Below, in pieces: positions 24,695-45,284 of a stretch of 64,000 bases of DNA; within the stretch, counting starts at the first letter, position 1; each line of letters opens with the position of its first letter. Source of the stretch: Cyrtodaria siliqua (lineage: Eukaryota > Mollusca > Bivalvia > Adapedonta > Hiatellidae). Made by a program: the position numbers and the translations under genes. The stretch spans positions 62,001-126,000 of the forward strand of contig JAWPHD010001417.1 in assembly GCA_037043455.1 (NCBI GenBank). Direction: 5' to 3'. The notes under the pieces are model-generated. The model was given only the letters and a program-made list of their open reading frames with translations. It did no database searches and was not told the origin of the DNA.

Positions 24695-24695
24695 T

Positions 24696-26943: not shown

Positions 26944-26967
26944 TTTTAAAAAATATATATAAAAAAA

Positions 26968-27447: not shown

Positions 27448-27759
27448 TTACTTTGAAAAGACTAAGTCATATGCATGATACCTATTTTTTTTGTTGTTTT
27501 TACATGGTTTCAATCCAAGTGGTCGAATATAATATGGTGGTTTAGCACTCTTCTCTAATTTATTTTTAAGATGATCAGGCGCCCATACTTCACCATTGTC
27601 TAATAATGTCAATACCATGGATGGACCATATTCAGTATCTACTATTTTCGTATCTGTAATTTTGTATATTTTATTTAGTTCCAAGTCTGTCCATTTCTTT
27701 GTGCTATTTTGATATTGCTCTTCGAGCAGTTCATCAAATTGTGCAGTTGTGATTTCCAT
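27448..27759 (-). CDS. Possible OB-fold (ssDNA-binding-like) protein, 103 aa
   Basis: A compact beta-rich frame: LNKIYKITDTKIVDTEYGP, SMVLTLLDNGEVWAPDHL, PPYYIRPLGLKPC, YHAYDLVF. An N-terminal 'Y.I....V.T.YG.S..L.L.DG..V..P..L' rhythm is seen in small OB-fold proteins that bind single-stranded DNA, which a protein-primed replication system would need. This is a pattern-level guess, not a proven family match. It is divergent from the integrase (45 bp between starts) and is partly duplicated at 24,539-24,694. Confidence 0.5.
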   Translation of the reverse strand: MEITTAQFDELLEEQYQNSTKKWTDLELNKIYKITDTKIVDTEYGPSMVLTLLDNGEVWAPDHLKNKLEKSAKPPYYIRPLGLKPCKNNKKNRYHAYDLVFSK

Positions 27760-27803
27760 TTTTTCTTTATAGTTATATAAAGTTTATTCTTTAGTAGAAA
27801 AAA

Positions 27804-28718
27804 ATGGAAAAGATTTATTACAGCCCAAAAGGATTTTGGAGAGGTTACACAGCAGTTAAAAAATTAGCAAAAGAGGCTGGTGTCAGTGAAAAAAAGGCAT
27901 TAGAATTTTTAAAGAAACAAGCTGTGTGGCAAATTTATTTACCTGCGCCGAAGAAAATAATTAGACCCAGGTTTGATGTTTCTGTTAAGAATGGAGTGCA
28001 TCAAGCTGATTTGTTATTTTTACCGCATGATACTTTTGGGATTGGTCGTGGACGCAAGACTTATAAATATGCGTTGACTGTGGTTGATATTGCAAGTAGA
28101 TACAAAGAAGCAGAGCCGCTGACTTCCAAGGATAGTAAAGAAGTTGCTAAAGCATTTGAGAAAATATACAGTCGGCATTTAAAATATCCAAAGTTATTAC
28201 AAGTAGATCCAGGCAGAGAATTTATGGGTGCAGTATCACAGTTGATGGCAAAACACAAAGTAAATATCAGACGAGGCAGAACAGAAATACACAGAGACCA
28301 AGCTTTAGTTGAACGATTTAACAGAACATTAGCTGAAAGATTGTTTGGTTATCAGTATGCTAAGGTAATAGATTCGCAAAAACGCAACAGAGAGTGGGTA
28401 AAGAGATTACCAGAAGTTGTTAAAGCCATAAATTCGGAGACAAAAAAGCCTTCTCCTGTTGAAACAAAAATATTAAAAGATGATCCTATCTGTATGAATG
28501 CAAGTGTGAGATATTTATATCAACCCGGGGAACAAGAAGGTGGAAGACGCAGAGCAACTGATCCAATGTGGAGTGTAGATATTCACAAGATTAAAAGTTA
28601 TATGGTGACGCAAGGTATAAGAGTTTATTATTTGAAAGCACCAGCGCCACAAAGAGGATTTGTCAAAGAAGAATTACTTATTGTTCCTGCTGATACCCAA
28701 ATTCATAAGTTTTTATAG
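27804..28718 (+). CDS. Retroviral-type DDE integrase (Polinton integrase), 304 aa
   Basis: Catalyses insertion of the element into host DNA. The rve core has D69 (in HQADLLF), D135 (in LLQVDPGREF) and E170 (in LVERFNRTLAERLFGY), giving the expected D...D-35-E spacing. The region after residue 250 with WSVDIHKIKSYMV is a possible C-terminal binding domain. The first 60 residues are basic and helical, with no obvious HHCC zinc finger. The frame is intact. It ends 16 bp inside the end of the convergent polymerase gene. The 5-bp target duplication seen at the element ends is presumably its product. Confidence 0.95.
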   Translation: MEKIYYSPKGFWRGYTAVKKLAKEAGVSEKKALEFLKKQAVWQIYLPAPKKIIRPRFDVSVKNGVHQADLLFLPHDTFGIGRGRKTYKYALTVVDIASRYKEAEPLTSKDSKEVAKAFEKIYSRHLKYPKLLQVDPGREFMGAVSQLMAKHKVNIRRGRTEIHRDQALVERFNRTLAERLFGYQYAKVIDSQKRNREWVKRLPEVVKAINSETKKPSPVETKILKDDPICMNASVRYLYQPGEQEGGRRRATDPMWSVDIHKIKSYMVTQGIRVYYLKAPAPQRGFVKEELLIVPADTQIHKFL

Positions 28719-31700
28719 AAACCATGTGCATCAGTTGTAATTCCATCTTCTCGGATGTATCTTTTTGAGTAAAATGGTGATAATGTAACTTTGTTTACTT
28801 TTATGCCATATATTTGATGCTTCATTGATCGCATCATATTCATTTCATGGTTATATTTTTTCTTGTTAAATAGTGCATCCTTGTAGTTTTCAAAATTTAT
28901 ATGTTTTTTAACTACATATTCTTTTACACCCTTTGCTTTCTTAATAATCTGCTCATTCACTTTCAAAATAGAATCTTGTTTGGATCTTAATCCAATATCC
29001 TCAACTGTAAAAACACCAGGACATTCATCTTTCACTTCACCTATTGATTTAATAATCTTCTCATCCGCTTTCAAAATAGAAGATAGTCCGGATCTTAGCT
29101 CATCCGGTTTAGAATATAGTTCAGGTCTTGATTCAATATACTCAACTATAGAAACACCAGGACACTCATCTTTCATTTTATTTATTACTTTTTCAATAAC
29201 CTGCTCATCCGCTCTTAAAACAGAATATAGTTTGGGTCTTAATCCAACATACACAGCTATAGCAACACCATTACATTCGTCTTTCATTTTACCCAATACT
29301 TTTTTGTTTGTATCATCATGCATTGGGTGATTTTGAGGATAATCACTTAGATCATACTCATCTTTCATTTCAGCCATGTCTTTGTATGCATCATCTGTTT
29401 TGATGTCTACAAGCAAGCTGTCAGTATCTGTGTATAATAAAGTACAGTTATTTTTGTACCTTTTTTTCAAAGTATTATAATACCAATCATACATATGGTA
29501 CTTTGATAAATCCAATACTGCCATTCCAACATAAATTGGTTTGTTTAATGTTAATTTTGTTTTGTTTACATGTACTGCTGATAATTCATCTGAAAATTTT
29601 ATACGCCTGTTAAAGTTGGGTTTGGCTATTATTTTTCTTATTTTTTCATTTTCAGAGCCGTCAGTTCTGACTAGTTTTATATCAGTCCGCTTGCGTAGAT
29701 TTTCCATTGTTTTGCCAAACACAGAGTTGTTCGCAAGTTTGTAAAAATCTTTTTCAAAGGGTGATTTAGCTTTTTTCCTAAGTTCTGTGTTTAGATTTAT
29801 GTATGATGTCATCCATGGTTTTTCATTAAATTTTAATACTCTGTGTACTTTCTTTAGTTTCATACCCAAAGATAAATACAGTTCCAGGGTTTTGTGATGT
29901 ATCACATATTTTTCTTTGTCCATAAGATTTGGGACTAGTTGTTCTGTATTTATCATGCTATTATTTTCTAACAGATCTGTCTGGTATTTAGACAACCATT
30001 CTTTTTTTACTGCTAATCTTTCCGGTGCAAGTGGATAGTCATTATGAGATTCATGAAGTTCTTTAGAATATTCCAAATCAACTTCTGCAAAATATCCTTT
30101 TCCTTTTTTTGACTCTGGCAACTTTCCTGATTCCCCCCACTTAAAGCCAGAATATGGAAGTGGTTGACTCATTGCCCAACCATAGAGGTTACAGGCATCA
30201 TAATACATTAAAAAGTTGTTTTCCTCGTTAGGGTTATAATCAGCTACATATGGATTGTTTGCTTTGGCATATCGTTTTGATACATTACTAATTCCACCAT
30301 GCATTCCTTTTTCTATAAATAAGTGCATGTCAATGTCTGTCAAAAGTTCCAATTCTATTTTTGAATGTTTAAGTAAAGCATCCAAAAATAATCCAGGTGC
30401 TGTGTAGTAATGTAAAGCATCAAGTTTGTATGCATTCATACATGTTTTTCTAAAAGTTTGAAACACATCTGCTAACAGAGTTACATCAGTTTTTAAATAT
30501 AAATCATGATAGTCTCCAAGAGTTTTACAGTTAAACTCTTTCCATATTTTTTGAGCGTATTCATAATCTTCAGTACTTATGTTTTCATCTGATAAACTAC
30601 TGTAAAACTTTTCTATAGGTGGTAATTGCGTTTCCTTAAATCTTTCCATACTGCCCATATATTCGTATGGATAAACACCTTTTCGTAAAAGTAAATCTGT
30701 TTGTTCTCCAAACTGATTTTTGGTAATTTTGAAATCAGATTTGTCTGTTGCTTTAACCAATTTTTCCAGAGACAAAGCCATAAATTGGAAACTGTCTAAA
30801 AATCTAAGTTGTCCGGCACTAAATGAAATATACTTTTCAGCGTTGTTTGGAATGCATGTTATATTACCTTTCATTTTATGTATTTTTTGCATGATGAGAT
30901 GACTATCATATCCTTTGAGGTTGTGAAATATAACAGGTATAGGTGTTTTGTTTGGTTTTATTTTTAGTTTTAGGTTGCAGTTTTTATGTGCTGCACCTCT
31001 GTATTCTCCTGTAAAATGACAGTGATCTCTTACTTTACAGTTTTTGCCACATTTCCTACCTATTTCATTTTCGCATATCCAGCAGTGTGTTGCTTTTTCA
31101 TAATCTTCCTCATTTTGTTGTGTCATAATTAGGGGTTTTGGGTGAGCAAATATTTTATTAATGTTGCTCTTCTCACATTCTAAGTGATTTAAAAACTTTT
31201 CAACAGTATCTTCACCTCTGTAAATAACAGGTTCTTCTGTTTTACCATCATATCTGACAACTTGATATCCAAATCCACAAGCTTCGTTCACACTTGTAAT
31301 TTCAGATTTCTTTCCAAATTTAGTTGATTGTGGTTTGATTATACTCTCAAAATCAGCATATATTGCATAAGGCACAGGCATCTGATTTTGATGATTTTTA
31401 AATTTTACAGTATTTTTACCTTCCTTTGGCATTTCTATTCTGCAAGAATTTTTGTTAATACCATCACAGTCTTCTTTGTGTTTTGTAAGTAGTCCTTGTC
31501 CAGAATAGCCGTGAAGGCAACGATCGCAAAAGTAAGTTTGACCTTTATGTTTGTTTTGGTCATAGAGCAGTCTATTCAGATTTTTAATCCAGCAATAGTG
31601 ATATTTTGTTGTTAATGTTTTTGGTTCTTTGGAATAATCATCAGGGTTATAGTTGTCATCTATAATTCCTTCTTCATTATTTGGATCGTCTTCGTTTTCT

Positions 31701-32770
31701 GATTCAACTTCAGTGTCTTCAGATATTAAGATCAAATTAATTCGTTCAATATCTTTTGGTTGTTCTGATATTTTATATGGAAAAACAGATACCTTTTTAT
31801 TTTTTCCTGTTATGGTATATCCATAAACGTTGATAGCAAGGTTGTTTTGTTTCTCTACTTTGGTTATTTGAAAAATTGGAGTGGGAAAGTCAATACCATC
31901 CATATTCAACTTACCCATGTGTTTGTTATAACTAGATATCCTAGTTGGATTATTTTTATTAGGCCACAAAGCAGAAACCAATGCCACTTCCAAGCACTTA
32001 TTATCTTCATTATTAACATTAATTATTGCTTTTTTATCAGATACTACTTTAGGCAAAGGAATATATGAAGAACCTTTTAATGGTTCATACTTTGCAAAAT
32101 TTAAGTAAAACGTAACACAGTGATCAATCTCCAATCCAGATGCTGTGTTTGTAAATCTTTCAAGGCTCTCTTGTATATAAGCAGATGATTCATCGTAAAA
32201 CTCATTTATTTTTTCAGAGGTTAAAATTGCATTTTGCTCGCTGTGTAATACTGCTGTAGTGTATTTTTTGGTATCACCATCATCTTTGAATAAATTTACA
32301 GTGAGACCTAAATGAAACTTTAATCCATCCATCTTTGTCAGCTCTTTGCTTATTTGTTTTGTAATAATGGATTTCTTATCACGGAATAGTTTTTGAGGTT
32401 CTTTGTATTTCTCGGCAGATATTTCGTATGCTTTAAAATAGCCACACATTGGTTTGTCAACCAGTTTTAATTCTTCTTTAGATTTTCTATCATTAAGCTC
32501 TTTCAGTTCATTTATAACATTGTCTCGTAATTTAGCATATTTCTGCTTTTGTTCATCTTGCAATTTATCATATTTCTGCTTTTCTCGTTTACGTTGTTTC
32601 TTAGCACGTCGTCTCTTGCGTAAATTTTCTAATGTTTGAGAATTAACCTCTTTTGGAGTTTCCTTTGGAACTTCTTTCAATGCATTTATACCGTTAGATA
32701 GTGTTTGCTTATCTATTACACCTGTATCAAACAGGCGTATTAAATTTTCTATAATCTCTTCAGTCTTCAT
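28703..32770 (-). CDS. Protein-primed family B DNA polymerase, 1,355 aa
   Basis: Replicates the element. Basic coiled N-terminus (about 50-145); a domain typical of Polinton polymerases (about 150-350, with NKCLEVALVSALWP); a C2H2-like finger (YFCDRCLHGYSGQGLLTKH, 413-431). Exonuclease: Exo I YADFES (471-476), Exo II FHNLKGYDSHL (615-625), Exo III around YLKTDVTLLADVF (758-770). An endonuclease VII-like zinc insertion with DHCHFTGEYRG lies at 582-592. Polymerase motif A is YYDACNLYGWAM (856-867), motif B KLANNSVFGKTMEN (1011-1024), motif C YTDTDS (1113-1118). All catalytic residues are present. Odd feature: about 40 residues after motif C are repeated three times in tandem (1159-1196, 1197-1241, 1242-1279). 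The frame is uninterrupted. Confidence 0.96.
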   Translation of the reverse strand: MKTEEIIENLIRLFDTGVIDKQTLSNGINALKEVPKETPKEVNSQTLENLRKRRRAKKQRKREKQKYDKLQDEQKQKYAKLRDNVINELKELNDRKSKEELKLVDKPMCGYFKAYEISAEKYKEPQKLFRDKKSIITKQISKELTKMDGLKFHLGLTVNLFKDDGDTKKYTTAVLHSEQNAILTSEKINEFYDESSAYIQESLERFTNTASGLEIDHCVTFYLNFAKYEPLKGSSYIPLPKVVSDKKAIINVNNEDNKCLEVALVSALWPNKNNPTRISSYNKHMGKLNMDGIDFPTPIFQITKVEKQNNLAINVYGYTITGKNKKVSVFPYKISEQPKDIERINLILISEDTEVESENEDDPNNEEGIIDDNYNPDDYSKEPKTLTTKYHYCWIKNLNRLLYDQNKHKGQTYFCDRCLHGYSGQGLLTKHKEDCDGINKNSCRIEMPKEGKNTVKFKNHQNQMPVPYAIYADFESIIKPQSTKFGKKSEITSVNEACGFGYQVVRYDGKTEEPVIYRGEDTVEKFLNHLECEKSNINKIFAHPKPLIMTQQNEEDYEKATHCWICENEIGRKCGKNCKVRDHCHFTGEYRGAAHKNCNLKLKIKPNKTPIPVIFHNLKGYDSHLIMQKIHKMKGNITCIPNNAEKYISFSAGQLRFLDSFQFMALSLEKLVKATDKSDFKITKNQFGEQTDLLLRKGVYPYEYMGSMERFKETQLPPIEKFYSSLSDENISTEDYEYAQKIWKEFNCKTLGDYHDLYLKTDVTLLADVFQTFRKTCMNAYKLDALHYYTAPGLFLDALLKHSKIELELLTDIDMHLFIEKGMHGGISNVSKRYAKANNPYVADYNPNEENNFLMYYDACNLYGWAMSQPLPYSGFKWGESGKLPESKKGKGYFAEVDLEYSKELHESHNDYPLAPERLAVKKEWLSKYQTDLLENNSMINTEQLVPNLMDKEKYVIHHKTLELYLSLGMKLKKVHRVLKFNEKPWMTSYINLNTELRKKAKSPFEKDFYKLANNSVFGKTMENLRKRTDIKLVRTDGSENEKIRKIIAKPNFNRRIKFSDELSAVHVNKTKLTLNKPIYVGMAVLDLSKYHMYDWYYNTLKKRYKNNCTLLYTDTDSLLVDIKTDDAYKDMAEMKDEYDLSDYPQNHPMHDDTNKKVLGKMKDECNGVAIAVYVGLRPKLYSVLRADEQVIEKVINKMKDECPGVSIVEYIESRPELYSKPDELRSGLSSILKADEKIIKSIGEVKDECPGVFTVEDIGLRSKQDSILKVNEQIIKKAKGVKEYVVKKHINFENYKDALFNKKKYNHEMNMMRSMKHQIYGIKVNKVTLSPFYSKRYIREDGITTDAHGFYKNL
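28934..29296 (-). repeat. In-frame triplication inside the polymerase gene
   Basis: Three successive copies of a segment of about 115-135 bp encode KMKDECNGV, KMKDECPGV and EVKDECPGV starts, each followed by an LR/SR..LYS-like and an ADE/NE..I-K ending. The reading frame is kept. Confidence 0.9.
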
Positions 32771-32835
32771 TATTTCTTTTTGATATACTTATATTTTTTT
32801 TTATTTAATATAAAAACATATATCAAAAAAACACA
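32771..32835. promoter_or_regulatory. Divergent promoter between polymerase and right-end gene
   Basis: A 65-bp AT-rich gap with ATATAAAAACATATATC towards the right gene and, on the minus strand, an AAATATAAGTATATC tract towards the polymerase. Leaders are short, as elsewhere in the element. Confidence 0.45.
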
Positions 32836-33153
32836 ATGGAAATTAATGTTTGCAAATTTCTTAAAATTGGATTACACAATCCGTGTAAAAATAAAACTAC
32901 AAAAGATTCTAATTATTGCTGTTTGCATAAGTATAGATTAAAAACAAGTCATGTATTGCCGTGCTCAATATGTAAAAAAGGCACAAGAGCAAAAAATAAA
33001 ATTTGTGCTGATTGTGGTGGAGTTTCAGTCAGAATAATGACACGTTATTGGAAATTTAAAGATTATAATGCTGAGTGCTTAAAATTTAGACGTATTGATG
33101 TTCAACCATATAAAAAAAAAAAAACTTGCAATCTTCACTACCCCTATTTTTAA
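32836..33153 (+). CDS. Small zinc-ribbon protein, 105 aa
   Basis: Cysteine pattern: C6, C17, C28, C29, H31, then C43-x2-C46 and C57-x2-C60 (PCSICKKG...KICADCGG), a classic zinc-ribbon spacing. The rest is basic. It may bind nucleic acid and act as a transcription or replication accessory protein; that is inference. It is the right-most gene, divergent from the polymerase. Its last ten codons (from about 33,122) are read from the inner edge of the terminal repeat, so the repeat supplies the stop codon. Confidence 0.65.
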   Translation: MEINVCKFLKIGLHNPCKNKTTKDSNYCCLHKYRLKTSHVLPCSICKKGTRAKNKICADCGGVSVRIMTRYWKFKDYNAECLKFRRIDVQPYKKKKTCNLHYPYF

Positions 33154-33374
33154 AATTTTTTAATAAATCAAGTAAAATCACTATTTCATGATGATTTATT
33201 TAAAAAAATTAAACTTGCAATCTTCACTACCCCTATTTTAAAAAAGTTTTAATAAATCAAGTAAAATCACCATTTCATGGTGATTTATTATATATGTGTT
33301 TATTTTGGGGTCGTTCTGCTGCAATTCGAGGTAAAAAAAAAAATTACAACAGAAACCCCAAAATACATATATAT
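33122..33374 (-). repeat. Element 1 right terminal inverted repeat
   Basis: Near-perfect inverted copy of 17,363-17,615. The few differences cluster in the A/T runs, for example around 33,156-33,166. It contains the same two 89-bp units and the terminal tattttggggt inverted pair. Confidence 0.95.
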
Positions 33375-33379
33375 AATTG
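33375..33379. repeat. Target-site duplication of Element 1, right copy
   Basis: AATTG, identical to 17,358-17,362. It continues into TGTTGTTTTATT, the counterpart of TGTTTGTTTTT at the empty site. Confidence 0.85.
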
Positions 33380-33921
33380 TGTTGTTTTATTTCCTTTTAG
33401 TATATATGCTTATAGTGCATAAACTTGTACCAAGTGTAAGCAAATTTGATTGACAAAGTCCTGACGTACCAGATCATAGCACTTTCGCAAACTATTCACG
33501 ATATGTATGTGTATATTATAATATAATAACCAGCATTAACATTAAATATAGCCGCACATGCGTATGAAGAATAATATCTCAAAGCATTTGCCATACAATC
33601 TCGTTCTATGCCTTACTATAGTGACACTGCGTTGGGATAGTGTACTTGAAACGGTTGTACGGCTAAACGTTTCCGCTTTTCAAATAACCTCGCTGGTATG
33701 TAAATAAATCAGCCACAAAAGGCGAAAAATACAAACACACGTTATCATAAATTATGTATATGTTTTATTGTTTACATGTTTGTTTGCATAGTTTCTTAAT
33801 GTCTTTATACTCCATCTCCCACCACCTCCTGAAGTATCCGTGGAGGCAGAATAACAGTACACAAACGGCACGTGTCGCCTATGGTGGGTGAGACGTGCCT
33901 AAACGGAGTCATAACCACACC
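33380..33921. repeat. Host segmental duplication, copy B, middle part
   Basis: The only host DNA between the two elements. It matches copy A at 5,502-5,610, 5,640-5,670, 6,385-6,470 and 6,905-7,225, without the R2 and R1 insertions of copy A. Confidence 0.8.
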
Positions 33922-35310
33922 AGTAGTAGGGGGCGGGGGGGGCCTCCTGGACGCCAATACAGAACAAAGGAAAAAAATCTGTTGTTTAGAACAAAGGAAA
34001 TTATTTATGAAGACAAGAGAACTAGTGTACTGAACAAAGGGAAACAAATGCTTTTGTAGCGTGGTGTAATGGATAATTATCTGAGCGGTAGGGACTTCTA
34101 TTGTGTGTCAAAACAGATGACAATAGGAAAAAGGATTCCATTGTGGGTTTGGTTCTTTTGATGACGTTTTTTGTCATACTGCAAAGAAAATTCTCGGGAT
34201 TTTATTGGTCAATGAGGCGTAGACATTAGCCCATGTCTAGGTCTCGCGACGTGAACTTAGGACAATTTTCCCGTAGCTACCCCATACCTGCAATACACAA
34301 AAACAAAATGGCAACGATAACGTTGCCGATTTGTTTTGGAAACCGCCGATTGTTTCCTTTATATTGCTTTTCTGCGCTTTCCATTGTGTGTAAAGGTCTG
34401 AAATAATCGTAAGTATATATTTTTTGCAATTTTACAGATAATAAAACATTAACATAGAGATAAAATACGTCTATTTTATGAAAAAAATCCACCAAATTTA
34501 ACGACGTTAGAGCGATGACGTCACGAAAATAAACAACGTCTAGTTAGAGGCACGTTACGGGGATATTGGGGCAATAAAAATGAAAACATGTTTTGGCTGT
34601 TTTTTTCTTGAATAAATGGTGACAACTTTGAAGTATGACAAATTCGTTATTAGTATTCTTGACAGGGAACAGGGGCTCACATTCCCTGCCTGGAAAATAT
34701 ATTTCCCCTCGCCTAACGGCTCGGGTGAATATAATTTCCAGGCTCGACTAACGGCTCGGGTGAATATAATTTCCAGGCAGGGAATGTGAGCCCATGTCCC
34801 CTGTCAAGAATCCTAATAACTTATAATGTCTCCGGTATGTCTAGAGTCTCTATTGTGCGCGTGATGTACTGGAACTATTATTAACAATGGAATCCGATAT
34901 GGACAGAATAAAAAGAATATTTTGCTCTATAGAAAGTTAGTGTACCATTAAGTACTGGAGACAGGGTGTCTGGACTCGTCTTTATACAAGTGTCACAACT
35001 GATGACAATAGCTAAAAGGACTATATATAGTAGTAGGTTCTTTTGATCACTCAGTATGTCTCCCGTGTGTCTAGTGTGTGCTTGCTGTGCCTGAACTGTT
35101 ATTAACAATGGATCAATATATATAATTGAATATTTTGTTCTGTTGACAGTTAGGGTACCATTTAGTACCGAAAACAGTGTGTCAAGACTCGTCTTTATAA
35201 ATTAACCAATCAGGACGACGCGGTTAACCAGGCAAGAATACGTAAAAGATGAACGTTTAAGTGGAGTCCCATCACTCAGACAACATATTTCACACATGGT
35301 CAATATCAAA
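33922..35310 (+). repeat. Element 2 left terminal inverted repeat
   Basis: Matches the complement of the right repeat over many blocks: gaacaaagg units, atttatgaagacaa, ctagtgtac, aattatctgagcggta, gatgacaatag, gtctccggtatgtcta, ggtaccatttagtaccgaa, and aaccaatcaggacgacgcgg. It contains an extra 650-bp stretch (about 34,168-34,815) that the right copy lacks, ending in a palindromic element. Confidence 0.85.
34655..34815. repeat. Palindromic insertion in the left repeat of Element 2
   Basis: A foldback unit with arms that read ttgacaggg...ggctcacattccctgcctgg and their complement. Between the arms lie two direct copies of an 'acggctcgggtgaatata' block. It is non-coding. Confidence 0.8.
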
Positions 35311-35394
35311 GCTCCATTGTAAGAGCCTCAACTTACATTTGGTATAACTCAATGGATCCTATAGATTTTATAACACTATACAAACGCCTCTGTG

Positions 35395-35665
35395 GATAGC
35401 ACTCAATCTCACGGTTATAAGACAATACCTTTATTATCGCACTCTGACCAAAGTTTTTGGAATCTTCATTAAGTCGAAGGGCAACTTACGATACTTTCGT
35501 ATGTTCTTGCAAATACAATGCAAAAGGCAATGGTGAACATTTAAAGAATGGATACGTGACATCGTTTTTGAGGAAATTATCATGAAATATATTTTGGAAG
35601 AAATCAGATGCGCCAACCTAACTAGACCCTGGACACGTAGCAACATCAGCAGCATTAATAATAGG
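35395..35665 (+). pseudogene. Possible coding remnant, unassigned
   Basis: One plus-strand frame reads almost continuously through this part, with one stop in the middle. It includes LTKVFGIFIKSKGNLRYFRM and, after the stop, TFKEWIRDIVFEEII. The composition looks protein-coding, but I recognise no domain. It lies between the left terminal repeat and the CAG-rich tract. Confidence 0.3.
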
Positions 35666-36131
35666 TAGCAGCAGCAACAGCAGTAGTAGTTAACAACAGC
35701 AGAAGAGGCAGCAGTTATAGGTAGCAACAGCAATAATAGGTATCAGCTGCAGCAGCAGTAGTAGGTAACAGCAGCAGCAGCAACAACTGTAGTAGGTAAC
35801 TGCAGCAGCATTAGTAGTAGGAAGCAGAAGCAGCAGCAGTAGTAGGAACAGCAGAAATAGTAGGTATCAGCTGCAGCATCAGCAGCAGTAGTAGGTAGTA
35901 GCAGCAGCATCAATAGTAGTAGGTATCAGCTGCAGCATCAGCAGCAGTAGTAGTAGTAGGTAGTAGCAGCAGTAGAAGTAGTAGGTAACAGCAGCAGCAG
36001 TAGTAGGTAAAAGCAGCAGCAGTAGTAGGTAACAGCAGCATCATCAGTAGTAGGTAGCAGTAGCAGCAGCAGCAGCAGTAGCAGGAAGAAGCAGCAGCAG
36101 CAGTAGTAGGTAGCAGCAGCAGCAGAAGTAG

Positions 36132-36169
<38 letters not shown>

Positions 36170-36172
36170 AAC
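35660..36172 (+). repeat. CAG/TAG-rich microsatellite
   Basis: About 500 bp of interrupted agc/agt triplets, in higher-order units resembling gcagcagtagtaggtaac. It ends with an uninterrupted CAG run at about 36,133-36,165. Long Leu/Ser/Ala-type open frames on either strand here are artefacts of the repeat. Confidence 0.95.
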
Positions 36173-36220
36173 TTATAAGGAACAAAATAACACATTTTAA
36201 TTAAAAGTATCAAATACACA

Positions 36221-37524
36221 ATGTATACGTGTAATTATTGTTCTAACAATTATGTTCGGTCAGGTGATTTAAAGCGACACAAACGTAATAAGCATTACAT
36301 AAACGCAGAAGCATATATGCAACAACCGCAGCAGCAACAACCGCAGCAGCAGCAGCAGCAACAACCGCAGCAGCAGCAACATAAACAGCAGCATCTTCAG
36401 CAGCAACCGTAGAATCTTCAGCAGCATCGGCATCATCATCATCAGCAACAACCGCAGCAGCAGAAACATGTCAAGATATCGGAAAAAAACGTTTCATTCT
36501 ATCATCCGTTCACATGTATACTTAGCGGATCTACTTTGAGCGGCCAGACATACCTTGTGAAGAACGTTCTACGAGATAATTTGAAGAGGCTGTTTCCTCC
36601 ACCCATCGTATTATCTGGCTTTATAAACGGTGGCAGTCATTGTACGATGTCGTCAAAACAACAGTCAGTCCGAATATACAAGGAATACCGTTAAATTTGG
36701 AAAAAGATGAGTTTCTAGATCCGAACATCAGAAATGTAATTATTCTAGATGATCTCATGTCATTGTTTGGCAATGATCCATGTATCACAGATTTGTTTAC
36801 GGAAGGAAGTCATCACAGGAATCTCTCGCTTTGGACCAGAACTTATATTTCAGTAAAGATCCGACACAGCGAAGAAATTGCCACTATCTTGTATTGTTCA
36901 ACAATCCTGTGGATAAACAATCAGTCATGACATTAGCAAGATATATATATCCTGAAAATCCACAATATTTCATGCGTCATGTTAGTTTTGCGATGAATAG
37001 CGGACCATTTTCTCTCTTGTTAGTAGATCTTAAACCTACAACCCTAGAAGCAAATCGACTTTGCACTAATGTATTAGGACAACCGGAAACCGATGAGAAG
37101 ACATTGACCAATCAAAGTACATGCCATAAGGAGGCTATAAGGGCTCAAGAATCAGCGTCGGCAAACTGTCATAAAGTGCGTGAACAAATCAGAGCCGTTT
37201 GTATCAAACCATTCATCCTCCGACGAAACTGATAACGAAAGCGACTGCAGTCTCGATATGCCAATTTGTGACGAGTGTGGTATTACGTTCGGTGACAGCG
37301 CTATACATAAAGAAGTCATGGGTCATATACAGGATTTTTTTGAACGAGGATTTAAAGTGAAGGTAGCCATAAAGTCATCTTTGGCCAAATATAAACATTT
37401 GACTGAACGCACACTGAATAATTATGATTCGGATAACATGGATAAAGAAAAGAAAATGAGGAAGATGGTGAGGATGTTGATGAACCAGAGTGAACAGAAA
37501 TTTAAACACTTTGGAAATTTTTGA
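36221..37524 (+). pseudogene. C2H2 zinc finger-polyQ-packaging ATPase remnant
   Basis: Starts MYTCNYCSNNYVRSGDLKRH with a good C2H2 finger (C4, C7, H20, H25). A Gln-rich tract encoded by CAA/CAG follows, with a stop at 36,410. After the stop the frame carries a decayed P-loop, GSTLSGQT, with Gln where Walker A needs Lys. The frame shifts near 36,604, and a Walker B/DLM segment follows (NVIILDDLMSLFGN, then LFTEGSHHRNLSL), typical of A32/FtsK-like packaging ATPases of invertebrate Polinton-like elements. Further shifts lie near 36,830 (then YLVLFNNPVDKQSVMTLARY) and 37,185. The last part has another Cys/His pair (CDECGITF...HKEVMGH). Non-functional as written. A zinc finger fused to this ATPase is unusual. 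Confidence 0.8.
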
Positions 37525-37589
37525 ACCTTTATAGTTTATATTTTATGATATTAAAGTATTAGTTCGTTGGTTACATTGGCAATTATAGA

Positions 37590-38260
37590 ATAAACCGAGA
37601 CTGCACTATTTCGTATGTGTCGTGCTCGGCCGTTTCCAAAGGTCCATTATCATACTCTTTCTTTATAGCACAGTGGCGTTGCTTGTGCAGTGTGGCGGCA
37701 GTAAAACGTCTCCCCGCGCTTGCAATCAGTACTGTTATTCATTCGATCTTTGGAGATCGCTGAGCCCGATACTTATGTTTAGTTATCGGTGGTACATTTT
37801 CAATTTCTTTTGTTTTCTTACTTCATTTTTGATTCGGTGGTTCCACTACTCCGGTTGATAAAAGGCTCTGGGTATTGTTTAACCACTTATAGGATATGTT
37901 GTCTGCTTTTTAATTTAGTCTTTTGGCTGTTACTTGTGATACGCAGGCTTCATAACCGCTGCTTCCAACTAAATTCCATTATGTTTATTTCACTCTTCGG
38001 GGCATTTAATTTTATTAGATACTGGGACCATACGCCGTACGACATGGGGAAGCAAAGAACTCCATGTCTACCGCCGTATGCATGCCATCTTCGGGATGGT
38101 TAAAATTGTGTACTATTGATTTTATGAATATTGAGTTCTGCTCAACCCGGGGCTAAAAGGCGTGAGCGGTTGCTAGCATATTTCACTATGCTCATGAACA
38201 GTCTCAATCAAACGGCCGTTTCCAAAGGTCCATTATCATACTCTTTATTTGATAAACAGT
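37590..38260. repeat. Dispersed repeat, two partial copies
   Basis: Blocks 'gtttccaaaggtccattatc', 'gggaccatacgccgtac' and 'caacccggggctaaaaggcg' recur in inverted order at 44,420-44,740. The two short open frames here (78 and 104 codons) lie within this repeat and are not supported as genes. Confidence 0.7.
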
Positions 38261-38649
38261 ATATTCATGTAAATGAAGATATTTTAAAACAATATGTGCA
38301 CCATTTGTAAAATATTCTTCATGTAATTTTCAAATTTACAAATGTTTTAACGAGTGTGTCAGTTAGTCGACATGTGGTTTGGTATACTTTAGTTGGTTAT
38401 TTTAATTGTATTGTTCATGACCTTCGGCTACGCATAGTCTTAATAAATTGATGCATGCTACTGTAACGTCTACCGAGCGGTCTTGTACAATTGAGCCGCA
38501 TATTCCAAATTACAGATTGAGCTACTAGCTCGAAGAAAATGATTATTAACAAACAACGAATCAGCCAATATAATTAACAGAATGAGCAACTATGAGTATA
38601 AAATGATTGCATTAATTGATGTATATAAAACAATATGGTAAATAGCTAG

Positions 38650-39085
38650 TATTTACTGCTGAGATTTTGGGGCTCGCTCTATTCGGGCTACCTCCCAAAG
38701 CCGTCCACAGTATTACCTAGAAGGTTCTTACCAAGTGCTCTTTTCTACTGCAATCAGAATCACTTCCTAAATCGTCAAGCTTATTCAGCTTCAGAGCAAC
38801 AATGAACCTGTATAATTGGCTGCAGCGCCTTATATACAGTCCTGAACCATCCCAGTTCTGATTGGTCGGTTAATTTGATTGGACAAAAAAGTGATTGGTC
38901 AATGTATTTGATTGGTTCGATTTCAATCCGTTTTGTGAAACAAGAAATCAACCGGAAGTTATAATATACGTAAGTAAAACGATTTGCACGAACAGGGATA
39001 ATTAAATAGACGAATACAAAATCGTCGAACTACATAAATAAATGTGAGGTTTGTTGGGAGGTGGCCAACCCTGACCCTCACAAAC
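38650..39085 (-). promoter_or_regulatory. LTR-like promoter segment (possible solo LTR)
   Basis: On the minus strand there is a TATATAAG box (38,829-38,836) with four CCAAT boxes upstream (38,860, 38,877, 38,893 and 38,910, read as gattgg on the plus strand), all in about 85 bp. The segment could begin TGTGAGGGTCAGGG near 39,084 as an LTR would, but a matching CA end and target duplication were not found. It splits Element 2 between the ATPase remnant and the TBP-like remnant. It could be an LTR, or a fragment of a cellular promoter. Confidence 0.35.
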
Positions 39086-39317
39086 CTATTACGAGGTGAA
39101 TAAATTGATGACCATTAATTTGGTGATTGAAGTTTAAAATAAAAGAAGTAGTTCGTTATTTTATAAATAACCCATAGACAATATTATATAAACAAATATA
39201 GTATATAGTACGCAAGGGATTAGGGTGGTCCCCTTGACGCACTTTACACGAGTTGTAATTCTAATAACGTAGGTATAACACAATCATAAAATTGTCTTTC
39301 TGTTTTGATTCCCATTA

Positions 39318-39739
39318 TCAGGATCCAGTATGAAAACATGTGAAATGAATAGTTTTCTTCACAAACATGGCCTCAGTGAACCTCTCGGGTTCGTGGGAGC
39401 CTCTGTATTTCAGAGGTCCAAAGGTATATCCAATTTGTAAAACGCTGAAATTGTGGATATTATGTTGATGGTCGTCAATTTCACGTTCCATCTCATTCGT
39501 TGTTAACATCTGGCATATCGTCTCAATCGTCGCCTGGCTTCACTTATAGACTCGATTTTACCATTGACCATCATTTTTCCATTGGAATGTAACTGACAAC
39601 ATCCACCAATTATGTTATGATTCCATATAGTTCCGGATAATTTTCGAGGATTGAAAACGATGTTGCCACATTTCGATTTTAATTGTCTCAAATCAATGTC
39701 ACACTGTATATCGGTGTTGCAGACCACGTTCGTAATCAT
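39318..39739 (-). pseudogene. TATA-binding protein (TBP)-like remnant
   Basis: Two overlapping minus-strand frames together cover both halves of a TBP-like saddle. The first (from 39,739) has ITNVVCNTDIQCDIDLRQLK, GNIVFNPRKLSG, then LHSNGKMMVNGK and EARRRLRRYAR. This matches the order in the TBP repeat: conserved N-P-R/K-R/K turn, SSGKMV-type strand, and the K-YAR helix. A one-base shift near 39,505 leads into the second half (FSVLQIGYTFGPLKY, EPERF), which stops early. TBP binds promoter DNA and nucleates transcription; a virus-borne copy could direct transcription of viral genes. The remnant is far from cellular TBP, so it is not a processed host pseudogene. Confidence 0.75.
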
Positions 39740-39859
39740 TGTAGCACCGCGTTAGTCTCTCTGCTGCTTCTCTGGCTACTCTTTTTAATTGATAAAATTG
39801 CAGCCACCATTCAAAGTCATCAATCAGAAAAACGATTACTAATGCCAGTCCAAACATTA

Positions 39860-40262
39860 TCAATCATCTGTGTGTGTGTGTGTTTGTGTGTATTTTTAAG
39901 GATTATAGACCGTCCACCAAGCAACCGTCAGGCGTTCTACCTGAAGGTCATAGGTACAATTGAGTCTGGACTTTTATCTGTGTGTTTGTGTGTGATGTGA
40001 TGATATGTTTACTTGAAGCAGCGAACTCAATGGTTTCTTTATAGTGCTGCCAAACTGGAATACCACGCCGTAATAGACATGATACCCACAGTCACATTGT
40101 TCTGACACTAGTCAATCAGCTGTAGCACTACCCATTATTTGCTCGTCAGGCAAGGGTTACAAGTGACTACTACCATTTTTAAAGTCTTTGGTATGACGCG
40201 GTCAGGAGACTCGAACCCATGACCTCCCGAATGCAAGGCAGACGCTCTAACTACTTCGGTAA
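39860..40262 (-). repeat. tRNA-derived SINE
   Basis: Reading on the minus strand, a tRNA-like head (about 40,262-40,190) has a box A-like gtagttagagcg and a box B gggttcgagtctc. A body of about 300 bp follows, with a (CA)n/(CACAA)n tail near 39,870-39,895. The tRNA part is degraded and is not a functional tRNA. It separates the TBP-like and BIR-like remnants of Element 2. Confidence 0.75.
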
Positions 40263-40469
40263 TTATATGAATAATCTGTCTGAATAAATGTTTCTTTTAT
40301 ACCACAACGTTAACGAGAAGTGATAAAATACTGCCTTTTGATTGGCTAGCTACATTTCAATTCAAATGACGACACACTCACTTTGATGTATAAAATGGTT
40401 CCTTACTTCTATCAAAAAACGTCATGACTGCGAAACCCCAGAAACCGTCTTGTCATAGGTTTCTTCTTT

Positions 40470-40672
40470 TCCACACCCACCATCTTGACATATTCCTAGA
40501 GCTCAATTTGACTTGACAACAAAAGCAAACGATTTCATCAGCATTACCCTTGTAGTAAAATCCAGCTTTGGCTAATTTATATTTATCCGTTTAGGGTAAG
40601 TACCAAACGTAGCAAGTCGATTCTCATAGCAATTCGTGTTAGATACACAACGTATTGTCACGTTCATCATAT
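40470..40672 (-). pseudogene. BIR (IAP-like) domain remnant
   Basis: Two minus-strand frames, offset by one base, give the core of a BIR zinc domain. The first has CYENRLATFGTYPKR (the R..TF..(W/Y)P start of a BIR). The second has LAKAGFYYKGNADEIVCFCC (the LA.AGFYY.G..D.V.CF.C core with the first zinc cysteines). The expected later His and Cys fall in a decayed part, so the fold cannot be complete. BIR domains occur in inhibitor-of-apoptosis proteins of insect viruses and of animals, and IAP genes are numerous in bivalves. The location inside Element 2 suggests virus cargo. Confidence 0.72.
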
Positions 40673-40939
40673 TAGTCGATCTGAACCTCATAAATAAAAT
40701 GCCTTCCAAAAATTCATCTAACGTCTTTGATGTGTCTTACTCTGGAGATCCATATGGTCTATAAATCCTACAATCTGTTTGGTCGGTTAGTGACTCATTG
40801 TCGTCAATAGTTCTTTATATGCACTTTTTGGCACGTGTTTGGTTATCGGTTCATAGGTCAATGTTCGTTTACTATGACGTCTATCTAAAATATAATTAAC
40901 GTGTGCAAACACGATTTAATATCTACCGGTTGTAGAACT

Positions 40940-41400
40940 CGTTCGGATTACATTCTGATCCATCATACATCGTTGTTTTTCTTTACCTAGTTCCGGTATC
41001 ACTTGTTCAATTCCAGCTTTCAATTCCACCAATGTGGCAAATTCTTAAAATTTTAAAATTTTAAAACAATCCCTGTTCTCGTGGGTTGCACTTCTTATCT
41101 GCCGTGAGATAACCAAAACTGACGTATATCGACCACACTAAATCCAGTATTCACCTGCATGTAACGATTGGCGCCCAGATGATGTCTTAAGTGAACTTTC
41201 GTCTCTTCTTTATGGGAAGTCACTGCTCGTTGAATATCTTCTAATTACTCTGCTTTCAACGACGTAGTGTTAACGGAAATTCCTTCATTGTCGGCATTTT
41301 GTTCACGTAAATGGACTGTGAAAATACAATGTTCACATTACCGTTTCCAAAATCCTTCACCTTTACATTAACATATTTTCCAAGCTGGTATGTAGCTCTG
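40940..41400 (-). pseudogene. Tandem PC4/Sub1-like coactivator remnant
   Basis: Minus-strand pieces resemble two successive PC4 DNA-binding domains. The first is YQLGKYVNVKVKDFGNGNVN, followed by decayed sequence. The second is LGANRYMQVNTGFSVVDIRQ, then F-W, EVQPTRTGIVL and LVELKAGIEQVIPELG. This order (LG..Y-V.V..F, VDIR(E/Q)(F/Y)W, PT(R/K).GI.L, then a terminal helix) is that of PC4, a ssDNA-binding transcription cofactor. At least two stops and two frame changes interrupt it. It is the gene nearest the right terminal repeat of Element 2. Confidence 0.72.
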
Positions 41401-41424
41401 ATATTTTCTATGTTTGAACTGTAT

Positions 41425-42386
41425 GTTGTCTGAATATTGGGACACCACTTAAACGTTCATCTCATACGTTTTGTTGCGTGGTTAACCGCGTCGTCCTGAT
41501 TGGTTAATTTATAAAGACGAGTCCGTACACACTGTCTTCGGTACTAAATGGTACCTTAACTGTCTACAGAACAAAATATTCTTTTCATCTTATTGATCTA
41601 TTGTTAATAATAGTTCAGGCACAGTACGCACACTCCAGAGACTCTAGACACACTCCAGAGACTCTAGACACACTCCAGAGACTCTAGACACACTGCAGTA
41701 GTTCAGGCACAGTACGCACACTCCAGAGACTCTAGACACACTCCAGAGACTCTAGATACACTGCAGTAGTTCAGGCACAGTACGCACACTCCAGAGACTC
41801 TAGACACACTGCAGTAGTTCAGGCACAGTACGCACACTCCAGAGACTCTAGACACACTCCAGAGACTCTAGACACACTGCAGACATATAGAGTAATCAAA
41901 AGACCCGTACTCACAATAGAATCCTTGTATCTATTGTCATCAGTTCTGACACGTGTATAAAGACACACTGTCTCCAGAACTTAATGTTACCCTAACTTTA
42001 TATAAAACAAACGAGGTTTGCATTCTGTTCCTCTATTGTTAATAATAGTTCCAACACATTAGGCGCACAAAAGAGACTTTAGACATACCGGAGACACATA
42101 AGATGATCAAAAGAACCAAACCCACAATAACACACAATCCTTTCACCTATTGTCATCAGTTTTGACACATAATATTAGTCCTTACCGCTCAGATAATTAC
42201 CTAGAGATCCATTACCCTACGCAACTTTGATCTAAACGAAAGCCTTTGTTTCCCTGTGTTCGGTACACTAGTTCTTTTGTCTTCATAAATAATTGTCTTT
42301 GTTCTAAACAAATTATTTATTTTCTTTGTTCTAAACAAAAGATTCTTTGTCGTGGCCCCTAAGAGACCCCCACTCCCACTTCTACT
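41425..42386 (-). repeat. Element 2 right terminal inverted repeat
   Basis: Complement of the left repeat. Matching blocks include aacgttcatc, accgcgtcgtcctgattggt, cggtactaaatggtacc, ctaccgctcag-like sequence near 42,190, ttcataaataatt and the cttctact end. It contains a tandem array at 41,630-41,885 that is not expanded in the left copy. Confidence 0.85.
41630..41885 (+). repeat. 20-bp tandem repeat with higher-order structure
   Basis: Units of cacactccagagactctaga alternate with a longer cactgcagtagttcaggc-type spacer, giving a higher-order period of about 60-90 bp. The array lies in the right repeat of Element 2. The left repeat has only single related blocks. Confidence 0.95.
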
Positions 42387-42944
42387 CAATTCATTTATTA
42401 GTACTGTGTTTTGTAGGTACTGTGCATTTCTGCATGTATAAAAATCGAACAGAGAATGTTCAATATACATCATGCGTAATTTCCGTGTGATAACATGGGA
42501 GAAAGTGGCTGAAATGCTCTATTCTGTTTGCGTTTTTTGCCTGTTTGTGTTGGCAAAACAAGTTCAATTACTAAACATTAGTATGTGTCCATAAATTGTT
42601 TTATAAGGAGAAACATATCGTATTCGCCCATTCCACTATATAACCGAGAAGATGCCATAATTCAGCATCATCAAATCTAACATAATGTCATTATGCGGAC
42701 TTGGTCCAGGAGACTTGAATTACATTACTAATTAATAAAAGTTCTGATGACATTACGATAACTTAACACTACGGCGCCAAATGTAAAGGTCTATAATGTC
42801 AGTGGGGGTTTATTATACTAAAACGAGTAAGACAGAGTAATGAAATCCAAGCATTCTTTAAAGCCAGAATATGTTTATGTTCAACATTACCGGAGATGGT
42901 GCAGACATTGTGTGGTTTATTATTATATTACCGTTATATAGAGT

Positions 42945-43412
42945 TTAATAACCAGTGTTTTTGAGATACGGGAAATATCTCCCGAGGTAGAGAAATGGCC
43001 CCGATATAAGAACGAGTGCGGAGCGGGAGATATTTTCAGTATCTCAAAAACACTGGTTACTAAACTATATATTACATAATTTAAAATGATATTTTATTAA
43101 TATTTCTAATGACTCACGCATTTTTACACCAGTTTGCACGAGAACGCCAAGACAACGTTACGTCATCCAAGACGACGTTACGTCATACAAACAAAACAAG
43201 TGGAACCGGAACTCTTCGTTAATTCCGTAATCGTTATTTCCTAGTGGCGGAATCCGACGAAGACGTCCGTAAAACAGTCGGAACGTCATTTGGCATTCCC
43301 GCCACTGACGGAAAAGGCCGAGCAATGGGAGATATTTCCCAGTAGAGCAAACGAGTAGATATAGCTTTTCTATTGCTAGTATTTCCTATACAAATCACAG
43401 ACAAATATGTAA
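42945..43412 (+). repeat. Foldback element related in design to R2
   Basis: Bounded by tatagagtttaat-type sequence like R2 and with the same hairpin architecture. The arms differ: 'aaccagtgtttttgagatac' and its complement near 43,037-43,062, and 'gaacgagtgcggagcgggag' between them. It is followed by cgtcatccaagacgacgtta repeats. It looks like a diverged subfamily of R2. Confidence 0.65.
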
Positions 43413-43415
43413 TAT

Positions 43416-43850
43416 ATAGAGTTTAATTAACATTGCTGAAGTGATACGGGGAATACTTCCCAGTGAGAAAGATTCTTGCGATATAGAAACGAGTGCGTTT
43501 TCGCAAGAGTTTCTATATCGCAAGAATATTTCTCACGAGTGAATTATTTTCCGTATCACGACAAAAATGTTAATTAAACTATATAATATATATTCTCTGA
43601 TGAATTTCTTTCCAATCGTCTTTTGAGACAAGTATTCCTTCTTCTGTCACTCCTTTGGCGACAGCGCGGAGTAATATTATGACGTCAATTCGTGACGTAA
43701 TATCGTGACGTCTATCGTTTAGTTCATAACGTTTGGCTACTGTGCTATCTTGCGCACTAGGCGAGATAGCACAGTCGAGGAAGGAATATGTTATAGGTTT
43801 TCTCAAACTGGGACATTTCTATAATTCATCACCGAATATATAATATATTT
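43416..43850 (+). repeat. Foldback MITE R2, copy 4
   Basis: Full-length R2, directly after the R2-like foldback element. Same hairpins and TGACGTCA-rich centre as the other copies. Confidence 0.8.
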
Positions 43851-44845
43851 ACATTACATCACCCGATGTCCCCAGGCGTTTATTGAAACAACTAATTTGA
43901 AACGTACCTTTCGGTAAAAAGTACGTAGATCTACCTCGTTTGTCTGTTTGTACATATCATACTTAATAAATGTTCTATAAAGAAAATGTCCCTGAACTAT
44001 ATCCGTGTTATGCATATGAGCACTGTCGTGTGACAAAAATATACACTGTCATTAAAGTTGAAATATCACACAGATAACAAAGTTTATATCGATTGTCCTC
44101 GTAATGGCAGACTCCATTAACGGAAACTAGTTCGAATCTACATCGAAGATGACACTCCTATCAATATGGTTAGCTTGATAAGCAAATGTAATAAACGTGT
44201 CTGTCAAAATTACGATCAGTAACCTGCCAGTAATTTATATTGACATTTAATGCATTTGATGCCAATGCTACATTACTTTAAACGCTAGTTCTTTTGAATA
44301 TGAACGCATAAGGTGAGCCACTCCTATCATTAATCTTTATAATATATATATACTTTTATATATCTTTATTTTATGTATATATAATACAGTGTTATAGCGG
44401 CAACATCCGCTAGCTTTCAAAACGAGTATGATAATGGACCTTTGGAAACTGCCGAGCATGACACATACGAAATATTGCAGTCTCGGTTTGATTGAGACTG
44501 TTCATGAACGGTAGTGAAATATGCTAGCTACCGCTCACGCCCTTTAGCCCCGGGTTGAGCAGAACTCAATATTCATAAGATCAATAGTACAAAATTTTAA
44601 CCATCCCAAAGATGGCATGCATATGGCGGAGGACATGGAGTTCACTACTTCCCCATGTCGTACGGCGTATGGTGCCAGTATCTAATAAAATTAAATGCCC
44701 CGAAGAGCTAAATAAACATAATGGAATTTAGTTGGGATAGAAAAGCATATTATTCTACTATAATGTGTTGTTCATGTTAAAGCATACTCAATATATTGCC
44801 TATATAATGCTACATTGTTTGTTAGAGAGTATAACCTTGCAAGGA

Positions 44846-45272
44846 TATATAGAGTTTAATTAACATTGTTGAAGTGATACGGGAAATAATTCCCGAGTGA
44901 GAAAGATTCTTGCGATATAGAAACGAGTGCGTTTTTGCACGAGTTTCTATCAAGAATATTTCTCACGAGTGAATTATTTTGCGTATCACGACAAAAATGT
45001 TAATTAAACTATATAATATATATTCTCTGATGAATTTCTTTCCAATCGTCTTTTGAGACAAGTATTCCTTCTTCTGTCACTCCTTTGGCAACAGCGCGGA
45101 GTAATATCATGACGTCAATTCGTGACGTAATATCGTGACGTCTGTCGTTTAGTTCATAACATTTGGCTACTGAGCTATCTTGCACACTATGCGAGATAGC
45201 ACAGTAGAGGAAGGGATATGTTATAGATTTTCCAATACTGGCAAATTTCTATAATTCATCACAGAATAAATA
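44846..45272 (+). repeat. Foldback MITE R2, copy 5
   Basis: R2 copy with a shortened central hairpin, since part of the right arm (the tatatcg portion) is missing near 44,949. Confidence 0.8.
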
Positions 45273-45284
45273 ATATATTTATTT

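What the first reader, a model, noticed from the sequence alone, without database searches (positions are those of the whole stretch)
33922..42386. A second, older virus-like element with AG...CT ends and an unusual gene set
The segment is absent from the duplicated host block, has inverted repeats of about 1 kb, and encodes remnants of a packaging ATPase, a TBP-like protein, a tandem PC4-like protein and a BIR domain. Transcription-factor homologues plus an apoptosis-inhibitor domain point to a DNA virus that controls its own transcription and host cell survival. I know of no described Polinton with this combination. This is the strongest candidate in the window for an undescribed system.
Basis: partly seen in the sequence, partly recalled or inferred. 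Interest (0 to 1): 0.88.

Follow-up and report, generated by a model that had tools for sequence, protein, structure and literature searches.

The report
Polinton virus with its own TBP
This is a decayed, cut-down copy of a virus-like Polinton element whose intact relatives in the same animal genome carry genes for a TATA-binding-protein homologue, a doubled PC4-like protein and an apoptosis-inhibitor domain, so this small DNA virus likely brought its own promoter-recognition machinery and would also help explain how apoptosis-inhibitor genes multiplied in such genomes.

Summary
The element is real: 33,922-42,386, AG...CT ends, 0.9-1.4 kb inverted repeats, absent from the duplicated host block. 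It holds broken genes, in order: C2H2-ATPase (+), TBP (-), BIR (-), PC4 (-). In its own 2.88-Gb genome these genes co-occur far above chance: 47 of 98 TBP loci have PC4 within 3 kb (0.02 expected). In intact relatives PC4, BIR and TBP sit beside protease, capsid-like protein, integrase, C2H2-ATPase and type-B polymerase, so they are genes of a Polinton (Maverick/adintovirus kind). The window copy lacks polymerase, integrase, protease and capsid. The same four-gene set is found in C464, C610 and C15046; C464 has an exact 6-bp target duplication. Best read as a mobilised deletion derivative. The viral TBP keeps residues aligned to the DNA-inserting phenylalanines; open copies show purifying selection (median dN/dS 0.225). 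Seven of 13 genes of the intact element have a TTATAAGRG box 39-117 bp upstream, against 0 of 15 genes of the window's other, TBP-less Polinton. 31 of 150 BIR matches lie within 5 kb of PC4 or TBP matches, another possible reading of 'retroposed' bivalve IAPs. Functions are inferred, not tested.

The parts
33922..42386 (.). whole element, AG...CT ends, four-gene Polinton derivative
   Evidence: empty site at 7227/7231; same kind of ends in C610 and C464
33922..35317 (+). left terminal inverted repeat, interrupted at about 34176-34820 by another repeat
41390..42386 (-). right terminal inverted repeat, with a tandem array at 41629-41883
35640..36170 (+). CAG-rich repeat; sister copies C15046 and C1059 match it, C464 partly
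36173..36180 (+). TTATAAGG box, 48 bases before the ATPase start codon; the only exact match inside the element (4 in the whole window, 3.6 expected by chance)
   Evidence: same place (-47) in the intact ATPase gene
36221..37524 (+). broken C2H2 finger + packaging-type ATPase gene
   Evidence: C2H2 E 7e-4, below Pfam's cut-off; 130 matches in the genome; tblastn to intact C2H2-ATPase E 1e-8. 'Packaging' is by gene order and recall
37661..38212 (.). later insertion of a repeat, not present at this place in sister copy C15046
39247..39745 (-). broken TBP-like gene (two TBP repeats in relatives)
   Evidence: Pfam TBP E 3.6e-10; tblastn E 2e-46
40439..40634 (-). broken single-BIR gene
   Evidence: Pfam BIR E 4e-9; tblastn E 1e-14
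41038..41193 (-). second PC4 domain of a broken tandem-PC4 gene
   Evidence: E 5e-8, 2 stops; tblastn E 5e-13
33916..33921 (+). left putative decayed 6-bp target copy (CACACC)
   Evidence: compare exact GTTCTA in C464
42387..42392 (+). right putative decayed 6-bp target copy (CAATTC)

Best explanation
The segment is an old, inactivated, likely deletion-derived four-gene form of a Polinton (Maverick/adintovirus-type) family whose intact copies in the same genome encode a TBP homologue, a tandem PC4-like protein and a BIR protein, which likely act together to switch on the element's own promoters and to keep the host cell alive. Shown: the family, its gene order, the linkage; no PolB, integrase, protease or capsid found in the window and in the sister copies C464 and C610 (C15046 likewise, but its left end is overlain by another Polinton); AG...CT ends; an exact 6-bp target duplication in one sister; a TTATAAGRG box before 7 of 13 genes of the intact element. 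Inferred: the viral TBP would bind the TTATAAGRG box and hand over to host TFIIB and RNA polymerase II (no RNA polymerase gene was seen); the PC4 protein would help promoter opening or coat single-stranded DNA; the BIR protein would delay apoptosis; the four-gene form would have been copied, packaged and inserted with proteins from full-length relatives.
For: Linkage in the 2.88-Gb genome: of 98 TBP loci, PC4 within 3 kb at 47 (0.02 expected), protease 39, BIR 19, ATPase 13; TBP and ATPase on opposite strands, ATPase downstream, in 24 of 24 match pairs within 12 kb, on 17 contigs. Intact element, read from two near-identical copies (overlap 99.4%): PC4x2 (Pfam 1.1e-11), BIR (2.6e-23), TBP (7.5e-26, two stretches), protease C5 (5.6e-5); rve 6e-14, PolB_2 1.8e-15 and 1.2e-22, C2H2 on the ATPase 4e-4, below cut-off. 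The 50 PDB rows shown for the capsid model are double-jelly-roll capsid or scaffold proteins (fold recalled). Four genes only in window, C464, C610, C15046; exact GTTCTA duplication in C464. TBP Phe 34, 51, 124 in 18 of 18 and Phe 139 in 15 of 18. Median dN/dS: TBP 0.225 (88 pairs), BIR 0.22 (3), PC4 0.38 (3). TTATAAGGG before 5 genes, reached by 0 of 300 shuffles; TTATAAGRG 7 of 13 against 0 of 15 in the TBP-less Polinton.
Against: No function was tested. No TTATAAGRG box within 120 bp of the TBP, PC4, protease, integrase, p111 or PolB starts, nor within 160 bp in other copies of TBP (0 of 24 loci), protease (0 of 18), PC4 (0 of 5) or p150 (0 of 1). The classical TATAWAD motif is not enriched (2 of 12, shuffled mean 2.85). 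Two of the seven boxes lie in a neighbouring coding frame and may be conserved as protein. The capsid model is poor (pLDDT 50) and its BFVD hits mix capsids with uncharacterised and BTB-annotated proteins. TIRs of the intact element were not found. 22 of 34 TIR-bearing contigs show no family gene within 12 kb. Protease dN/dS is weak (0.54, 12 pairs). BIR genes of the family are not one clade. BIR and ATPase matches rarely lie within 3 kb (1 of 146 BIR loci).
Confidence: 0.78

Rival explanations
1. Ordinary decay: each short copy was once a full-length Polinton and lost polymerase, integrase, protease and capsid on its own; there never was a mobilised four-gene form.
For: In the four short copies the genes are split over frames or broken by stops; later repeat insertions are seen; C1059 (left part only) and C6973 (ATPase, capsid, protease) show other states; only four short copies were looked at gene by gene, and junctions were not compared to the base.
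Against: The same four genes in the same order in window, C464, C610 and C15046; part of the ATPase-TBP spacer (window 38245-38461) is shared by C464 and C610, and 38287-38358 by C15046; C464 is bounded by an exact target duplication, about 6.9 kb apart; C610 has TIRs about 11.9 kb apart.
Confidence: 0.22
2. Chance neighbourhood: host TBP, PC4 and IAP pseudogenes and a viral ATPase fell together by separate insertions.
For: The genome has many BIR matches (150 listed), and 116 of 150 have no family gene match within 5 kb.
Against: Linkage within 3 kb is hundreds to about two thousand times above a uniform expectation for TBP-PC4, TBP-BIR, TBP-protease, TBP-ATPase and BIR-PC4; intact copies lie beside virion-type genes; the host TBP is split over exons and only 33% identical over 60 residues.
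Confidence: 0.02
3. The TBP, PC4 and BIR genes act against the host or rival viruses (for example by soaking up TFIIB or blocking host promoters) and not at the element's own promoters.
For: The TBP, PC4 and protease genes themselves lack the box; a BIR gene beside them suits host manipulation.
Against: The TTATAAGRG box before 7 of 13 genes, absent from the TBP-less Polinton, and the conserved residues aligned to DNA-contacting phenylalanines.
Confidence: 0.2

Closest known systems
Polintons/Mavericks (Krupovic 2014, PMC4028283, passages seen)
   Same: rve integrase, type-B polymerase, adenovirus-like protease, capsid with double-jelly-roll fold hits, ATPase; AG...CT ends and 6-bp target duplication (those two as defining features are recalled)
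   Different: adds TBP, tandem PC4 and single BIR; also a four-gene form in which no replication or capsid gene was found
Adintoviruses / MELD viruses
   Same: the capsid model's BFVD hits include MELD-virus and adintovirus proteins; PolB_2 + rve + C5 protease
   Different: TBP and PC4 are not mentioned in the two adintovirus-naming texts looked up for them (PMC11071296, PMC10120064); the founding adintovirus paper was not held
Virus-encoded TBP of large DNA viruses (ASFV, mirusviruses)
   Same: a viral TBP
   Different: those genomes are far larger (recalled; the ASFV and mirusvirus papers were seen only as listings; mirusvirus-like elements of an alga with sporadic TBP genes: passage of PMC10675990); this is an element of roughly 13 kb or more
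Bivalve IAPs of hard clam (PMC7831173, passages seen)
   Same: many intronless single-BIR genes scattered over the genome, DNA transposons enriched nearby, a BIR+PC4 'G3' type
   Different: explained there by retroposition and domain co-option; here the BIR gene sits beside PC4 inside a Polinton
Non-autonomous DNA transposons and satellite viruses (recalled)
   Same: ends kept, replication genes lost, recurrent layout; facing TIR pairs about 0.7-1.7 kb apart are also seen on four contigs
   Different: keeps four genes including an ATPase and transcription factors

Membership tests
Polinton/Maverick (intact family members) | type-B DNA polymerase | tested here: met
   DNA_pol_B_2 E 1.8e-15 and 1.2e-22, in separate open frames
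Polinton/Maverick (intact family members) | rve integrase | tested here: met
   E 6.3e-14
Polinton/Maverick (intact family members) | adenovirus-like protease | tested here: met
   Peptidase_C5 E 5.6e-5, 23.3 bits against a cut-off of 21.3
Polinton/Maverick (intact family members) | double-jelly-roll major capsid protein | tested here: inconclusive
Polinton/Maverick (intact family members) | packaging ATPase | tested here: inconclusive
   C2H2 finger below cut-off; AAA matches only E 0.04; no useful PDB match
Polinton/Maverick | terminal inverted repeats with AG...CT ends and 6-bp target duplication | tested here: met
   ends in window, C610, C464; exact GTTCTA in C464. Met for the short form; TIRs of the intact form not found
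Autonomous Polinton (window copy itself) | polymerase, integrase, protease and capsid genes present | tested here: not met
   none found by tblastn at E 1e-3 in 33,900-42,450
TATA-binding protein | two TBP repeats and DNA-inserting phenylalanines | tested here: met
   two Pfam stretches; PDB TBP alignment over residues 2-158; (fourth Phe 15 of 18). The window copy itself is broken
IAP / BIR | BIR domain | tested here: met
   E 2.6e-23 in the intact ORF; caspase binding not testable here

The most novel reading that the evidence does not exclude
A small animal DNA virus runs its own promoter code: a virus-encoded TBP with a doubled PC4 reads a private TTATAAGRG box before its virion genes, four-gene satellites carrying the same factors ride on it, and its BIR gene has been sown through bivalve genomes, where it is counted as 'retroposed' host IAPs.
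Probability: 0.35. Interest if true: 0.88.

Novelty: new variant of a known kind. Interest (0 to 1): 0.75.

Why it matters
Elements of this size are generally taken to rely on host promoter recognition (recalled). A Polinton with TBP, PC4 and a shared TATA-like box would be a compact, testable system for how a small virus takes over RNA polymerase II. The tie between BIR genes and Polintons (31 of 150 BIR matches within 5 kb of PC4 or TBP, 34 counting protease and ATPase) gives a checkable alternative for part of the bivalve IAP expansion and for the 'BIR+PC4' IAP type in print (PMC7831173).

Tried and rejected
Rejected: unlinked insertions. Rejected: recent capture of the host TBP; the host gene is split over exons and 33% identical over 60 residues. 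Led nowhere: IMG/VR scans with one TBP and with an alignment (no relative confirmed); homologue search with the BIR ORF (none); TIR search in the intact element; TATAWAD test (not enriched); PDB and PHROGs for the window's ATPase pieces and PDB for the intact one (nothing useful). Single origin of the family's BIR genes: not supported (3 label changes, 66 columns). The tree used 14 of the 34 Polinton-context BIRs; those with internal stops were not used, and one fetched domain (L110, C450) was dropped because the script's C..C rule did not fit it; 'HOST' there means only that no family gene match lay within 5 kb. The first TATA test missed the box because its pattern demanded TATA[AT]A; the later word count was not planned in advance, so its shuffle figures are exploratory: the 7-mer is matched by 1 of 300 shuffles, the 9-mer by 0 of 300. 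The same count on the window's other Polinton returned only A/T-rich words, also above its shuffles, so enrichment as such is not special; the word itself is. The check used too strict a pattern and was redone.

Literature: ten searches combined Polinton/Maverick/adintovirus with TBP, PC4, BIR/IAP, transposon or mollusc/bivalve words; no title or abstract start listed (at most 20 papers each) named a Polinton with TBP, PC4 or BIR. Term look-ups: PMC11071296, PMC11071308, PMC10120064 and PMC3671162 do not mention TBP or PC4 in the terms asked; PMC10675990 names TBP genes in mirusvirus-like elements without DNA polymerase or double-jelly-roll capsid; PMC8905726 counts Mavericks in hard clam. The library is open-access only.
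Full report
The host block at 6913-7757 matches 33623-33922 and 42398-42928 and lacks the segment between them. The segment has AG...CT ends and inverted repeats in three blocks at 76-86% identity, with a left arm of about 1.4 kb that includes a later repeat and a right arm of about 0.9 kb. The TBP and BIR pieces pass Pfam's cut-offs; the C2H2 finger does not. PC4 is weak in Pfam but is found at E 5e-8 by its relatives, and the ATPase by its intact relative at E 1e-8. 'Packaging ATPase' is a label from recall and gene order.

The window is part of a 2.88-Gb assembly that could be searched. TBP-like matches: 107 (126 of 126 candidates scored). ATPase-like: 130 (150 of 222 scored). Tandem PC4: 136 (150 of 181). 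Protease: 151 reported, 150 listed (150 of 2,013). BIR: 151 reported, 150 listed (150 of 472). Except for TBP the counts are lower bounds. Merged into loci, 47 of 98 TBP loci have PC4 within 3 kb, 39 the protease, 19 a BIR and 13 the ATPase; a uniform scatter expects 0.02-0.03. All 24 TBP-ATPase match pairs within 12 kb, on 17 contigs, are convergent in the same order.

The window copy is a cut-down form. Tblastn with 17 gene queries at E 1e-3 finds only ATPase, TBP, BIR and PC4 in the window, in C464 and in the two stretches fetched of C610; C15046 has the same four, next to integrase and protease of another Polinton, which overlies its left side, so the missing PolB says little there. Gene order matches across these copies; parts of the ATPase-TBP spacer are shared (window 38245-38461 with C464 and C610, 38287-38358 with C15046). 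C464 is bounded by an exact GTTCTA duplication, about 6.9 kb apart. C610 has facing TIRs about 11.9 kb apart. C6973 carries an ATPase 86-89% identical in DNA to the window's together with capsid and protease genes, so the short form probably arose by deletion from such a relative. Of 34 contigs with TIR matches (40 of 56 candidates scored), 12 have a family gene match within 12 kb and 22 do not. Facing pairs about 0.7-1.7 kb apart on C2271, C5972, C5985 and C6127 look like miniature forms. C1059 is a segmental or allelic copy of the left part of the element with host flank.

Function. The intact TBP (169 aa) aligns with the TBP core of cellular structures over residues 2-158. The protein search returned 33 homologues, 14 of them exactly 169 aa long and 32 of 33 on contigs under 8 kb. 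In 18 aligned sequences, residues 34, 51 and 124 are phenylalanine in 18 and residue 139 in 15; by the PDB alignment these face the four phenylalanines that insert into TATA DNA (that role is recalled). The window's own copy has lost two of them (by eye). The host TBP is split over exons and 33% identical over 60 residues. Among open copies, median dN/dS is 0.225 for TBP (88 non-independent pairs), 0.22 for BIR (3), 0.38 for PC4 (3) and 0.54 for the protease (12, including a faster copy).

Promoter box. A test for TATAWAD failed (2 of 12). An unplanned word count then found TTATAAGRG 39-117 bp upstream of 7 of 13 genes: BIR, capsid, p123, p164, p114, ATPase and p150. The 9-mer TTATAAGGG lies before 5 of them, which 0 of 300 shuffles reach; the 7-mer TTATAAG before 7, which 1 of 300 reaches. 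The TBP-less Polinton at 17.4-33.4 kb has TTATAAGRG before 0 of 15 genes. In other copies within 160 bp: capsid 9 of 10 loci, BIR 2 of 3, p123 1 of 2, p150 0 of 1, TBP 0 of 24, protease 0 of 18, PC4 0 of 5 (many of these loci are close kin, and no other locus gave a usable start for p164, p114, ATPase or integrase). At the capsid gene the box lies in the p123 frame, and at p123 in the p164 frame, so both may be kept as protein. The window's broken ATPase keeps TTATAAGG 48 bases before its start codon, the only exact match within the element; window-wide there are 4 matches against 3.6 expected, so this one is suggestive by place only. The most likely mechanism is that the viral TBP reads this box and recruits host TFIIB and polymerase, with PC4 as helper; this is inference.

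BIR and the IAP question. 34 of 150 BIR matches lie within 5 kb of another family gene match, 31 of them near PC4 or TBP; 20 of the 34 match profile positions 1-70, while of the other 116, 73 match 1-69 and 7 match 1-70. In a tree of 39 domains (66 columns; 14 Polinton-context, 2 unlinked, 23 other), Polinton BIRs are closer to each other (median 50%) than to the rest (35%) but do not form one clade, so more than one acquisition or exchange is possible. In hard clam, 51 of 159 IAPs are intronless and scattered, 42 of the 49 in clade 1 are intronless with one BIR exon, DNA transposons are enriched nearby, and a BIR+PC4 type is called an innovation (PMC7831173, passages). Adjacent PC4 and BIR genes of a Polinton would explain these features; I could not test that genome.

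Host. Named relatives of the tandem PC4 are from Ruditapes philippinarum and Mactra antiquata, so a bivalve is likely, not shown. Contig lengths of 7,276 and 3,466 bases appear for both a TBP and a PC4 homologue, which suggests linkage elsewhere; those contigs could not be fetched.

Noticed in passing
window 17362-33375: The younger Polinton-like element (PolB-like ORF, integrase-like ORF, capsid-like ORF by eye) has its empty site in C1059: flanks read CTCGAATTG|ATATATATG...CATATATAT|AATTGTG, i.e. a 5-bp AATTG duplication and ends that are not AG...CT, unlike canonical Polintons.
   Followed up: partly
C1059:333001-342000 (L059): Segmental or allelic copy of the window (about 92-96% identical in the long pieces) that lacks the younger Polinton and carries only the left part of the four-gene element.
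   Followed up: partly
window 37625-38246: A repeat (also at 44486-44735, 93%) sits inside the element, flanked by a repeated stretch of about 34 bases; the sister copy C15046 has this stretch once.
   Followed up: no
L051:32-1916 (C15046): A different Polinton lies beside the sister copy: protease-like ORF, an ORF resembling a phospholipase A2 (by eye) and an integrase.
   Followed up: no
L054 (C4503:1-10000): Two TBP genes in inverted orientation with PolB-N pieces on both sides and p150 pieces on one, an inverted duplication of part of the element.
   Followed up: no
L062:2372-6879: PolB of the intact element is split over several open frames that look intron-separated by eye.
   Followed up: no
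window 6000-9640 and 43400-45280: A family of about 440-bp repeats with internal inverted symmetry recurs on both sides of the duplicated block.
   Followed up: no
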